From Acidomonas methanolica (GTDB lineage Bacteria; Pseudomonadota; Alphaproteobacteria; Acetobacterales; Acetobacteraceae): DNA of 64,000 nt. The translations under genes were made by a program, and so were the position numbers. Of this stretch, positions 3,491 through 8,417 are shown one piece after another. The stretch is from assembly GCF_004346035.1 (NCBI RefSeq), contig NZ_SLZN01000002.1, positions 124,001 to 188,000 of the forward strand, written 5' to 3'. The notes below the pieces were generated by a model that did no database searches, had not been told where the DNA came from, and saw only the letters and a list, made by a program, of their open reading frames with translations. How positions within the stretch are numbered: the stretch's first letter is position 1; each line of letters starts with the position of its first letter.

Positions 3491-3532
3491 TCCTCCCACA
3501 TGTCGCTTCCGGCACCAGCAGGACCTCGCCCC

Positions 3533-4420
3533 ATGCCGAACGAAATCCGCAGGATTCTTTTGCCGCTCAATTGCGGTCAGATCATCGAGCCCGCTCTGGA
3601 TGTCGGCCTGCGTCTTGCCCGCGCCTTTCATGCGCATCTCGCGGCCGTGCTGATCGGCGACGACCCGACCGAGACGGCAACCCTCGCCGGAGAAGGGCTT
3701 TCCGGCGCGATGATCAACGACATGATCGTCAATGCCGAGCATGAAGCCCAGCGCAGGCTGCTCCAGACCCGCCTCGCCTTCAACCAGTTCCTGGCAACCC
3801 ACGATATCGCCTGGACGGGGCAGGACCCCTCTCCCGCAACCGCCGAGGACGCGCGGGTGACGACGAGTCTCGACGTGCTGTCCGACTCCCGGCTGGAGCA
3901 GATCACCTGGCTCGCGCGGCTCTCCGACCTCACGCTGATTCCCCATCTGGATAGCGGGGACGACCCCCGCGCCTCGGAAACCCTCCATGCGGCGCTGTTC
4001 GACAGCGGCCGCCCGGTGATCATCGCGCCTCCCGCGATACCGGAGACACTGGGACGGCGCATCTGCATCGCCTGGAACGGCACTGCGGAAGCGGCCGTCG
4101 CCCTGCGCGCCATTCTCCCTTGCGCGCGGCAGGCGGAGGCCGTCTCCGTGCTGTGCAGCCCCGACTACCAGCGTCGCGGCCCCGAGGGGGAAAAGGCCGT
4201 CGAGTATCTCGCCCGGCATGGCGTCAACGCGACGCTGCTCCGCTTCACGCCGCAGGATTGCAGCGTCGGCGTGGCGCTGCTGGGCGCCTGCGCCGATTTC
4301 GGAGCGGACATGCTCGCCATGGGCGCCTATTCCCATTCCCGCCTGCGTCAAATGATTCTCGGCGGGGTGACGCGCCATGTCCTCGAACACGCCCCGCTCA
4401 CCGTCATGATGACGCGCTGA
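3533..4420 (+). CDS. Universal stress protein, UspA family
   Basis: A 295-residue protein starting MPNEIRRILLPLNCG. The C-terminal half has a typical UspA ATP-binding pattern, MGAYSHSRLRQMILGGVTRHVLEHAPLTV (G-x2-H-S-x-R-x3-I-L-G-G-V-T-R). The N-terminal half is a diverged Usp-like domain, so this is a tandem-domain cytoplasmic Usp. Such proteins bind ATP or AMP and support survival under stress, but the target here is unknown. Start 3533 was preferred because conserved residues begin immediately after it; an upstream ATG at 3500 adds 11 Pro-rich residues. It lies 42 bp after pdxH on the same strand. Confidence 0.85.
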   Translation: MPNEIRRILLPLNCGQIIEPALDVGLRLARAFHAHLAAVLIGDDPTETATLAGEGLSGAMINDMIVNAEHEAQRRLLQTRLAFNQFLATHDIAWTGQDPSPATAEDARVTTSLDVLSDSRLEQITWLARLSDLTLIPHLDSGDDPRASETLHAALFDSGRPVIIAPPAIPETLGRRICIAWNGTAEAAVALRAILPCARQAEAVSVLCSPDYQRRGPEGEKAVEYLARHGVNATLLRFTPQDCSVGVALLGACADFGADMLAMGAYSHSRLRQMILGGVTRHVLEHAPLTVMMTR

Positions 4421-4534
4421 ACCGAAGCTTTCCAAGCCGGGTCCGGCGTGCTACCGGCGGCGCGATGCCGCACGCGCCGTCACCTGCCGCTGTCTTGTCC
4501 GCGCCATGCGCCGCTTCCCCGTGAGCGCGTTCCC

Positions 4535-6490
4535 GTGAGCCGTTTCCCCGCGAGACGCTTCATCGACGGTCTGCCCAGCCGCGCCGCACGCGCCTGGCTG
4601 GGCCTTGCCCTCCGCACCACGCGCTGGACCGTCACCGGCGCGCCCGCCGCCGTGCCGATCCTGCGACAGGAGAGCGCGCGGCACGGCGCCATCGTCGCAT
4701 TCTGGCACCATTCCCTGCTGCAACTCGCGGCCCTCTGGCACTGGGTGCGGGACCGCCACTCCCATCTGCATCTGCATGTCGTCGTCAGCCGCAATCGCGA
4801 CGGACGCCTCCTCGCGGACGCCATCGCCCCATGGGGGATCGTCGGCATCGCCGGATCGAGCGCCCGCAAAGGCAAGGAGAAGGGCGGATCGCGCGCCTTC
4901 CGTCAGGCGCTCACGGTGCTGAAAGACGGCTGCATGCTCGCCATCACGCCCGACGGCCCGCGCGGTCCCGCCCGTGTCGTGCAGCCCGGCGTCGTCGCGC
5001 TTTCCCGCCTGGCGCACCGTCCTGTCGTGCCGGTCGGCGCGGCCTGCCATGCCCTTCGCCTGCCGAGCTGGGATCGTCTGGCCATCCCCCTCCCCTTCGG
5101 GCGCGGCGAGATCGTCCTGGCTCCCCCGCTCGACCCTCCCGCCAGCACCGAAGATCTCGCCGCCGCCCTGAACGCCGCGCAGGCCGAGGCCGAGCGCCGC
5201 CACGCCACCTCCGGCTGGAGTGCTCCGGAACGGCTCTGGGCGCTCCTGGGCACGCTTCTGGCTCCGGCGCTGATCGTGATGCTGCGCATCCGCCTCGCAC
5301 GCGGACGGGAGCTGGAAGACAGGCTGCGCGAACGCCTCGGGCTGACGCGCGTCCGGCGTCCGCGCGGCGCGCTGCTCTGGGTCCATGCCGCGAGCGTGGG
5401 CGAATGCCGGTCCGCCCTGCCGCTGATCGACGCGCTGCTGGAACTGCGCCCCGGCCTGTCCGTCCTCATGACCACCGCAACGGTGACGGGCGCGGGAATC
5501 GCCGCCGCCCATTTCGCAGCGTCCCCGCCGGAGCGCGCGGCGCGGCTGCGGCATCAGTTCATTCCCTATGACGTGCCGCGCTGGAGCCGCCGCTTCCTGA
5601 ACCGCTGGCGGCCCGATGCGGCGCTTTTCGTCGAAAGCGAGATCTGGCCGGGGCTGATCGCCGCCTGCGACCGGCGCGGCATCCCGGTCGCGATCGTGAA
5701 CGGCCGCCTTTCCGATCGCTCGGCCCGGCGCTGGGCGCGGCTGAAGCGCCTCGCCACGCGGCTCTACGGGAGACTGTCCTTCGTCGCGGCGCGCGGCGCG
5801 GAGGATGCCGCGCGCTTCCGGACGCTCGGCGTGCGCGAATGCACGGAATATGGCGATCTCAAACAGGCGGCCCCGCCGCCGCCCGTTCCGCAGGACGCCA
5901 TGGCGGAATTGCGCGCCGCCATCGGCGCCCGCCCGGTGCTGCTGGCGGCCTCCACCCACCCCGGCGAGGAGGAGATGATCGCCGAAGCCGCCCGGCTGTT
6001 GCGCGAGACACGGCCCGACCTGCTCTGCATCATCGCGCCGCGCCATCCCGTTCGCGCCGGGGAGATCGCCGCCGGTCTCGGCCATCCGCCCCGCCGCTCA
6101 CAAGGGAGGCTTCCCGGTCGAAGCGATTCACTCTACCTCGCCGATACGCTGGGCGAACTCGGGCTGCTCTACCGACTCGCCACCGTCGCATGGCTGGGCA
6201 ACGCGCATCGGCCGCCCGGCGGCGGCCACAACCCCTACGAGCCCGTCCGCCTGGGCGTGCCGCTCGCCACGGGACCGCATATCGACAATTTCCGTCCCGC
6301 CTTCGCCCGGCTGGCAGGGCATGTCGCCGTCACCCATGATGCGGGCGCGCTGGCCGACTGGGCCGGACCGCTCCTCGGCGACGCCGCCCGCCGCCGGGAG
6401 ATCGCGGACGGCGCGCTGAACGCAATCGGCGCGCAGGAGGAGGTTCCTGCCCCACTCCTAACACGGATCGCCCTCATGTTGCCCGCATGA
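4535..6490 (+). CDS. waaA: Fused DUF374 acyltransferase and 3-deoxy-D-manno-octulosonic acid (Kdo) transferase
   Basis: One uninterrupted frame of 651 residues holds two enzymes that are usually separate. Residues ~1-215 match the DUF374 lysophospholipid-acyltransferase-like family (FWHHSLLQ at ~56, TPDGPRGP near 135). From ~245 to the end is a WaaA/KdtA Kdo transferase: a membrane anchor, WVHAASVGE, ESEIWPG and the C-terminal GGGHNPYEPV motif. WaaA transfers Kdo from CMP-Kdo to lipid IVA at the inner membrane. The lpxK ATG overlaps this stop (ATGA). The start is uncertain: GTG at 4535 is used, and GTG at 4448 would add 29 residues of doubtful coding character. Neither has a good ribosome-binding site. 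Confidence 0.88.
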   Translation: MSRFPARRFIDGLPSRAARAWLGLALRTTRWTVTGAPAAVPILRQESARHGAIVAFWHHSLLQLAALWHWVRDRHSHLHLHVVVSRNRDGRLLADAIAPWGIVGIAGSSARKGKEKGGSRAFRQALTVLKDGCMLAITPDGPRGPARVVQPGVVALSRLAHRPVVPVGAACHALRLPSWDRLAIPLPFGRGEIVLAPPLDPPASTEDLAAALNAAQAEAERRHATSGWSAPERLWALLGTLLAPALIVMLRIRLARGRELEDRLRERLGLTRVRRPRGALLWVHAASVGECRSALPLIDALLELRPGLSVLMTTATVTGAGIAAAHFAASPPERAARLRHQFIPYDVPRWSRRFLNRWRPDAALFVESEIWPGLIAACDRRGIPVAIVNGRLSDRSARRWARLKRLATRLYGRLSFVAARGAEDAARFRTLGVRECTEYGDLKQAAPPPPVPQDAMAELRAAIGARPVLLAASTHPGEEEMIAEAARLLRETRPDLLCIIAPRHPVRAGEIAAGLGHPPRRSQGRLPGRSDSLYLADTLGELGLLYRLATVAWLGNAHRPPGGGHNPYEPVRLGVPLATGPHIDNFRPAFARLAGHVAVTHDAGALADWAGPLLGDAARRREIADGALNAIGAQEEVPAPLLTRIALMLPA

Positions 6491-7485
6491 AGATCGGCTT
6501 CCCCAGGCTCCGGCCTCCATCTTTCTGGACGACGCCGCAGGTCGGGCTTCCCTCGCGCCTGCTGTCTCCCCTGTCCAACGTGACGGCGGGCGTAAGCGCC
6601 TGGCGCGCCTCACGCATGACGACCGCGCATGTCGATGTGCCCGTCATCTGCTGCGGCAATCTCACGATGGGCGGCGCGGGGAAAACGACCCTTGCGCTCG
6701 ATCTCGTCCGCCTGCTGACCGCGCAAGGCTATCGCCCCCATGTCCTCAGCCGCGGCTATCGCGGCAGCGCGCGTGGCCCGTTGCGGGTCGAGCCGGGGTA
6801 TCACAGCGCCGCGACGGTGGGCGACGAGCCGCTGCTTCTCGCCCGCGTCGCTCCCACCTGGATCGGGCGGGACCGGGGCGAAACCGCGCGGCTCGCCGTG
6901 GCAATGGGGGCCGATTGCCTGGTGATGGATGACGGGCTGCAAAACCTCACCTTGCATCAGGATCTGCGGATCGTGACCATCGACGGCGCGACAGGCTTCG
7001 GCAACGGCAAGCTCTTTCCCGCCGGCCCGTTGCGGCAGCTTCCGCGCCAGGGGCTCGCCGCCGCGGGGGCCGCGGTCGTGATCGGACCCGACCGCACGGG
7101 CGTCACGGCCCGGATTCCCGGCGGCCTGCCGCTCTTTCACGCCAGGCTGATTCCCGGGCCGGAAATCCGCCGCCTGCAAGGTCGGCGCATCATCGCCTTT
7201 GCCGGACTCGCCCGCCCGTCCAAATTCTTCACCACCCTGATCGAGTCGGGCGTGGTTCCCCTGCGCTGCCTCTCTTTCCCCGATCACCATCGCTACACGC
7301 GCGCGGATTGCGAGCGTCTGGCACGCTTGCGCCGGGAAGAGGGCGTCACGCTCGTCACCACGGCCAAGGACGCCGTGCGCCTGCCCTTCTGGCTGCACGA
7401 GCAGGTGACGGTGATTTCCGTCGAGCTGCTCTGGTCGGAGCCTGACGCCCCGTACCGGCTGCTCGATCTGCTGCGCTCCGCCTGA
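6487..7485 (+). CDS. lpxK: Tetraacyldisaccharide 4'-kinase
   Basis: Phosphorylates the 4' position of the lipid A disaccharide to form lipid IVA at the inner-membrane face. The 332-residue product has the LpxK P-loop GGAGKTT after VICCGNLTM at ~53-68, the LSRGYRG segment, GDEPLLLA and DDGLQN. The start overlaps the Kdo transferase stop by 4 nt, and the stop overlaps the next start (TGATG), so the three lipid A genes are translationally coupled. Confidence 0.96.
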   Translation: MKIGFPRLRPPSFWTTPQVGLPSRLLSPLSNVTAGVSAWRASRMTTAHVDVPVICCGNLTMGGAGKTTLALDLVRLLTAQGYRPHVLSRGYRGSARGPLRVEPGYHSAATVGDEPLLLARVAPTWIGRDRGETARLAVAMGADCLVMDDGLQNLTLHQDLRIVTIDGATGFGNGKLFPAGPLRQLPRQGLAAAGAAVVIGPDRTGVTARIPGGLPLFHARLIPGPEIRRLQGRRIIAFAGLARPSKFFTTLIESGVVPLRCLSFPDHHRYTRADCERLARLRREEGVTLVTTAKDAVRLPFWLHEQVTVISVELLWSEPDAPYRLLDLLRSA

Positions 7486-8417
7486 TGCCCGATCGCGACC
7501 CCGCCCGCCCCCGGTTCATCCATTATCTGGAAGCCGCGGCCGCGCGCGCGGCCCTTGGGTTATTGCGACGCCTGCCGCCCGCGACCGCCTCCAATCTCGG
7601 CGGCGCGGTGACACGCATCATCGGCCCGCTCCTTCCCGTTTCCCGCGTCGCGGAGCGCAATCTGCGCCTCGCCCTGCCGGAGCTGGACGCCACCGCCCGC
7701 CGCCGGATCGTCCGGCAGGTCTGGGACAATCTCGGCCGCACCGCCGCCGAATTCCCCCATCTCGCCCGGCTGAACGAATGCGAAGGCGACGAATGCGAGG
7801 ACAACGGGCCGGGCTGGCGCGTCATCAACGCCCATCATCTGCGCGACGTCGCGGCGCTCGATCGCCCCGCCCTCTTCATCTCGGGCCATATCGGCAACTG
7901 GGAGGTGCTTCCACCGGCCGTGGCGCGCTACGGGATGCCCTTCGCCTCCTTCTATCGCGCCGCCGCGAATCCCCTGGTGGACAGGCTGATCGCCGACATG
8001 CGGCGCGACGCCATGAAGCAGGACGTGCCGAATTTCCCGAAAGGCGCGCTGGGCGCGCGGCAGGCGCTGCGTCATGTCGCGCAGGGCGGCCATCTGGGCA
8101 TTCTCGCCGACCAGAAGATGAATGACGGGATCGAGGCGCGTTTCTTCGGCCTGCCGGCGATGACCCCCTCCGCCGCCGCGATCTTCGCCCTGCGTCATGA
8201 TTGCCCGATCGTCACAGGGCGCGTGCGTCGCGTCGGCCCCGCCCGATTCGAGGTCATCGTCGATCAGCCGCTCTTCCCGGATGCGAGCGGGGACCGCGCC
8301 GCCGATGTCGCGCGTCTCACACAGGCGATCAACGACCGTCTCGAAGCCGCCATCCGTGCCGAACCCGGCGCATGGCTCTGGCTGCACCGACGTTGGCCAA
8401 AACATCTTACACCCTGA
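7485..8417 (+). CDS. Lipid A biosynthesis (lauroyl-type) acyltransferase, LpxL/HtrB family
   Basis: A 310-residue LpxL/LpxM-family enzyme that would add a secondary acyl chain to Kdo2-lipid IVA. Visible family features are an N-terminal hydrophobic region, RNLRLALPEL, the catalytic-type segment SGHIGNWEV (the His with downstream acidic residue pattern), LADQKMNDGI and the C-terminal WLWLHRRWP. It is the third gene of the lipid A operon, overlapping lpxK by 1 nt. Which acyl chain and position it uses cannot be told from sequence, so no specific symbol is given. Confidence 0.92.
   Translation: MPDRDPARPRFIHYLEAAAARAALGLLRRLPPATASNLGGAVTRIIGPLLPVSRVAERNLRLALPELDATARRRIVRQVWDNLGRTAAEFPHLARLNECEGDECEDNGPGWRVINAHHLRDVAALDRPALFISGHIGNWEVLPPAVARYGMPFASFYRAAANPLVDRLIADMRRDAMKQDVPNFPKGALGARQALRHVAQGGHLGILADQKMNDGIEARFFGLPAMTPSAAAIFALRHDCPIVTGRVRRVGPARFEVIVDQPLFPDASGDRAADVARLTQAINDRLEAAIRAEPGAWLWLHRRWPKHLTP

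What the first reader, a model, noticed from the sequence alone, without database searches (positions are those of the whole stretch)
4535..6490. DUF374 acyltransferase fused to Kdo transferase in one polypeptide
A single continuous frame of about 650 codons encodes a DUF374 domain with the FWH motif and then a complete WaaA. In other bacteria these are separate neighbouring genes. A fusion would couple acyl transfer and Kdo addition physically during lipid A assembly and implies that DUF374 has a lipid A role.
Basis: partly seen in the sequence, partly recalled or inferred. Interest (0 to 1): 0.6.

Follow-up and report, generated by a model that had tools for sequence, protein, structure and literature searches.

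The report
LpxJ–WaaA lipid A enzyme fusion
Acetic acid bacteria make one protein that joins two enzymes of lipid A (endotoxin anchor) assembly, an LpxJ-type (DUF374) acyltransferase and the Kdo transferase WaaA, which most relatives make from two neighbouring genes; the join is real, conserved and arose again independently in Hyphomicrobium relatives, but both enzymes are of known kinds.

Summary
Window 4535-6490 (+; the frame is open from GTG 4448) is one frame encoding DUF374 followed by a complete WaaA. It is not a sequencing artefact. The same in-frame fusion occurs in 14 of 120 sampled Acetobacteraceae genomes and in named Acetobacter, Gluconobacter, Gluconacetobacter and Asaia. The join is usually 95 codons long, evolves like coding DNA, and contains no possible start codon where separate WaaA proteins begin. 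Most relatives carry the two genes side by side, often with 4-base or 1-base stop-start overlaps. A second fusion clade exists in Hyphomicrobiaceae; a single origin with the acetic acid bacteria is rejected. Some acetic acid bacteria (Bombella, Saccharibacter relatives) later lost the DUF374 part. All catalytic residues of both halves are intact, and AlphaFold predicts one compact two-domain protein (pLDDT 94, pTM 0.90). Most likely it is a bifunctional membrane-surface enzyme that adds Kdo and a secondary acyl chain to lipid IVA. I found no paper describing the fusion. Verdict: real new variant of a known kind; activity and coupling untested.

The parts
4448..6490 (+). whole open reading frame of the fusion (GTG 4448 or GTG 4535 start; stop TGA 6488-6490)
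   Evidence: relatives' N-termini
4535..5212 (+). DUF374/LpxJ acyltransferase domain (residues about 1-226; Pfam match residues 75-146 = 4757-4972); catalytic residues W57 H58 D89 D140 W179 D180
   Evidence: Pfam; residue table; model
5213..5299 (+). junction: 3-residue turn then WaaA N-terminal membrane-anchor helix (residues 230-255); no in-frame start codon at the native WaaA start
5318..6487 (+). WaaA (KdtA) GT-B Kdo transferase domain, complete (residues 262-651)
6487..7485 (+). lpxK (lipid A 4'-kinase), start overlaps the fusion's stop by 4 bases (ATGA)
7485..8417 (+). LpxL/HtrB-type late acyltransferase, start overlaps lpxK stop by 1 base (TGATG)

Best explanation
The gene encodes a bifunctional lipid A enzyme, LpxJ-WaaA. 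The N-terminal DUF374 domain is an LpxJ-type late acyltransferase that puts a secondary acyl chain on the 3'-linked hydroxyacyl chain of the lipid A precursor. The C-terminal domain is WaaA, which transfers Kdo from CMP-Kdo to the 6' position. The two were adjacent, translationally coupled genes in the ancestral operon. They were joined in frame in the ancestor of most acetic acid bacteria, keeping the WaaA membrane-anchor helix directly after the last LpxJ helix, so both active sites are expected at the same cytoplasmic membrane surface in 1:1 ratio. Shown here: the frame, the domains, intact catalytic residues, conservation, independent second origin and compact predicted fold. Inferred: both activities, the acylation position, and any benefit from proximity (matched stoichiometry or hand-over of substrate).
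For: Both domains score far above cut-off. The LpxJ residues that mutagenesis in R. typhi showed to be required (W60, H61, D86, D132, W172, D173; PMC6148475) are matched by motif at W57, H58, D89, D140, W179, D180 and are invariant in all 21 fused rows from Acetobacteraceae. WaaA E290 (general base), K443, R503, N566 and E569 are conserved (roles from PMC6286764). The operon continues with overlapping lpxK and an LpxL homologue. The genome has a single DUF374, the one in the fusion, and only one full-length LpxL/LpxM-family match. The linker evolves as coding sequence and there is no internal WaaA start. The AlphaFold model has pLDDT 94.3 and pTM 0.90, and Foldseek finds WaaA 2XCI first.
Against: No activity has been measured for any fused protein here. 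Acyl position and Kdo requirement vary among characterised LpxJ enzymes. Post-translational cleavage at the junction cannot be excluded. The DUF374 half was lost in several acetic acid bacteria that keep WaaA, so coupling is not essential.
Confidence: 0.82

Rival explanations
1. Operon compaction only: the fusion is a neutral consequence of stop loss between overlapping genes; the two domains work independently, without coupling or channelling. (This competes with the coupling part of the best explanation, not with bifunctionality itself.)
For: Adjacent pairs are usually overlapping: 39 of 68 examined have a start codon 4 or 1 bases into the stop, so fusion needs only a small indel. Fused and unfused forms coexist in one family. 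The DUF374 half is lost in some lineages.
Against: Fusion fixed and retained across many genera with constant linker length, and gained independently in Hyphomicrobiaceae. The predicted domain arrangement is confident rather than floppy (pTM 0.90).
Confidence: 0.5
2. Sequencing or assembly error, or internal initiation, so that WaaA is really made as a separate protein.
For: The two genes are separate in most relatives.
Against: Same arrangement in many independent genomes. No start codon in the window between 37 and 95 codons upstream of HAASVGE, while real WaaA starts lie 52-66 codons upstream. Coding-type substitutions across the join.
Confidence: 0.03
3. The DUF374 domain acylates something other than lipid A (for example a phospholipid or ornithine-lipid type acceptor).
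For: A weak match, below cut-off, to the general acyltransferase family PF01553 (E 0.039).
Against: Lipid A operon context in other alphaproteobacteria (MsbA-like ABC transporter, DUF374, lpxK), fusion to WaaA, and LpxJ catalytic residues conserved.
Confidence: 0.1

Closest known systems
LpxJ (DUF374, PF04028) lipid A late acyltransferase of Helicobacter, Campylobacter, Wolinella and Rickettsia
   Same: Pfam family, W-H, D and W-D catalytic residues, lipid A operon context
   Different: Characterised LpxJ proteins are stand-alone; this one is the N-terminal domain of a larger protein; its acyl position and donor are unknown
WaaA/KdtA Kdo transferase (Aquifex aeolicus 2XCI, E. coli)
   Same: Complete GT-B Kdo transferase with N-terminal membrane-anchor helix and catalytic residues
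   Different: Anchor helix is internal, preceded by an acyltransferase domain; number of Kdo units transferred is unknown
Adjacent lpxJ-waaA gene pairs of other alphaproteobacteria
   Same: Same two enzymes in the same order
   Different: Two polypeptides, often with overlapping stop and start codons, instead of one
LpxJ-WaaA fusion of Hyphomicrobiaceae (found here)
   Same: Same domain order and similar length (about 655-690 aa)
   Different: Independent origin (AU test p 9e-46); DUF374 half belongs to a divergent branch in which the D of the W-D motif is S in all 11

Membership tests
LpxJ / DUF374 late acyltransferase | Pfam PF04028 match above gathering score | tested here: met
   71.5 bits against 26.8
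LpxJ / DUF374 late acyltransferase | Catalytic and required residues W60 H61 D86 D132 W172 D173 (R. typhi numbering, PMC6148475) | tested here: met
   W57 H58 D89 D140 W179 D180, invariant in 21 fused Acetobacteraceae rows; correspondence made by motif order and spacing, the R. typhi sequence itself was not aligned
[quoted passage not shown]
   needs enzyme assay and mass spectrometry
WaaA / KdtA Kdo transferase (GT30) | Full-length match including N-terminal anchor and CMP-Kdo domain | tested here: met
   Glycos_transf_N 196 bits, NCBIfam models over residues 234-645; PDB hits 2XCI and 4BFC
WaaA / KdtA Kdo transferase (GT30) | General base E, and R, N, E of the CMP site (A. aeolicus E31, R212, N273, E276) | tested here: met
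   E290, R503, N566, E569 conserved; A. aeolicus E98 equivalent is D in several fused rows
WaaA / KdtA Kdo transferase (GT30) | Kdo transfer activity | not testable with these tools
   needs assay or complementation
Single fused polypeptide | One frame without stop and without an alternative WaaA start | tested here: met
Single fused polypeptide | One protein of about 70 kDa in cells, not cleaved | not testable with these tools
   needs proteomics or blot

The most novel reading that the evidence does not exclude
[quoted passage not shown] selection for this coupling produced the fusion at least twice in alphaproteobacteria.
Probability: 0.3. Interest if true: 0.6.

Novelty: new variant of a known kind. 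Interest (0 to 1): 0.4.

Why it matters
The fusion ties DUF374/LpxJ to a specific partner step (Kdo transfer) in lipid A assembly, which is Rosetta-stone evidence that the two act together even where they are separate genes. It gives a ready natural construct to test whether late acylation and Kdo addition are coordinated. It also predicts that acetic acid bacteria lacking the DUF374 part (Bombella, Komagataeibacter) make less acylated lipid A than relatives that keep it.

Tried and rejected
Long DUF374 frames in other alphaproteobacteria (G232 698 aa, G146 923 aa, G467, G481, G278) looked like further fusions but are GC-rich read-through of the open frame; waaA lies in another frame or was not found in the stretch fetched. 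Of three more candidates, only G719 (680 aa, Hyphomicrobiaceae-like) is a true fusion; G765 and G644 are not. Asaia astilbis appeared separate, but this is a frameshift inside DUF374; its join to WaaA is in frame. G012 (stop at the join) shows an ATGATG overlap at the stop, with waaA then continuing in another frame, probably a frameshift error in a fragmented assembly. Structure prediction of the DUF374 half alone without an alignment failed (pLDDT 40) and was not used. Foldseek with the whole model listed only GT-B folds (WaaA and relatives) among its best 50, so the acyltransferase fold was not tested separately. Literature searches for a described fusion found none; the library is open-access only, so this is weak. 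The Acetobacter pasteurianus lipid A structure paper (PMC5076526) is not held.

Full report
Observation. Pfam finds DUF374 at residues 75-146 and Glycos_transf_N (WaaA) at residues 263-444, both far above cut-off. NCBIfam Kdo transferase models cover residues 234-645. The frame is followed by lpxK, whose ATG overlaps the stop by four bases, and an LpxL-type acyltransferase overlapping lpxK by one base. So this is a lipid A operon.

Not an error. In 120 Acetobacteraceae genomes (the window's included), 13 carry the full-length fusion in one frame without stops, at 41-62% identity to the window in alignment. A fourteenth (G070) was found on inspection. A scan of named genomes finds it in Acetobacter pasteurianus, A. 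fabarum, A. lambici, A. nitrogenifigens, Gluconobacter, Gluconacetobacter liquefaciens and Asaia. The stretch between the DUF374 motif P-x-P-F and the WaaA motif HAASVGE is 95 codons in the window and in most of its nearest relatives. Across this stretch, differences between five pairs of relatives fall mostly on third codon positions (245, against 129 and 93 at positions 1 and 2), and length differences are multiples of three.

No internal start. Stand-alone WaaA proteins begin 52-66 codons (median 55.5) before HAASVGE. The window has no ATG, GTG or TTG in frame between 37 and 95 codons before it. Its only candidates (36 and 35 codons before) lie inside the membrane-anchor helix and lack a Shine-Dalgarno-like sequence.

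Distribution and origin. Of 130 loci examined, 35 were fused, 71 adjacent but separate, and 24 had waaA only. Among 68 separate pairs, 39 have a possible waaA start overlapping the DUF374 stop by four or one bases. In a WaaA tree of 73 rows, the acetic acid bacterial fusions fall in one clade (94/86) with some waaA-only members, and the Hyphomicrobiaceae fusions form another (100/99) far away among Rhizobiales. Holding the two fused groups together is rejected (p-AU 9e-46). A DUF374 tree gives the same two clades, each at 100% bootstrap. Two lone fusions, G042 and G070, may be further origins; the two trees disagree on G070, so I claim at least two origins, not four. Both also have in-frame starts near the native WaaA position, so they are weaker cases.

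Loss. All 12 waaA-only Acetobacteraceae genomes tested have no DUF374 anywhere. The Bombella/Saccharibacter group is nested inside fused lineages, so the acyltransferase half was lost there. For Komagataeibacter, which branches at the base, loss before or after fusion cannot be told apart.

Mechanism. DUF374 is LpxJ, a published late acyltransferase that adds the 3' secondary acyl chain and, in the cases tested, does not need Kdo (PMC6148475, PMC6286764). The residues required in R. typhi LpxJ correspond to W57, H58, D89, D140, W179 and D180 here, invariant in the 21 fused Acetobacteraceae rows of the alignment. WaaA's general base and CMP-site residues are conserved. The AlphaFold model, made from an alignment of 85 sequences, has pLDDT 94.3 and pTM 0.90, which suggests a defined domain arrangement. 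The last LpxJ helix (205-226) is joined by a three-residue turn to the WaaA anchor helix (230-255). Foldseek puts A. aeolicus WaaA first. The genome has no other DUF374 and only one full-length LpxL/LpxM-family match, so the fusion is its only LpxJ candidate. That the protein does both reactions, and that joining them matters, is inference.

Verdict. Observation confirmed. I found no description of the fusion in the open-access library, and subscription papers and domain-architecture databases could not be searched. New variant of a known kind, moderate interest.

Noticed in passing
L078, L080, L081, L083, L084, L088, L090, L093, L095, L096, L099: In all 11 Hyphomicrobiaceae fusions aligned, the aspartate of the W-D motif (required in R. 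typhi LpxJ, D173) is serine, so their acyltransferase half may use a changed active site or be impaired.
   Followed up: partly
G059, G072, G013, G031, G032, G060, G069, G029, G065, G100, G117, G115: Twelve Acetobacteraceae genomes (at least 98% complete) with a stand-alone WaaA have no DUF374 gene at all; the Bombella/Saccharibacter group among them sits inside fused lineages, suggesting loss of the acyltransferase half.
   Followed up: yes
L073:2501-3091: Asaia astilbis JCM 15831 has a frameshift inside the DUF374 part of the fusion; draft error or pseudogene not distinguished.
   Followed up: partly
G000:C2:328813-329169 (outside the window): A second, partial and weak match (33 bits) to the LpxL/LpxM acyltransferase family in the window's genome.
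   Followed up: no
L063, L065, L066: In three other alphaproteobacterial genomes DUF374 lies directly after an MsbA-like ABC transporter and close before lpxK, whereas in the window the upstream gene is a universal stress protein (3500-4420).
   Followed up: no
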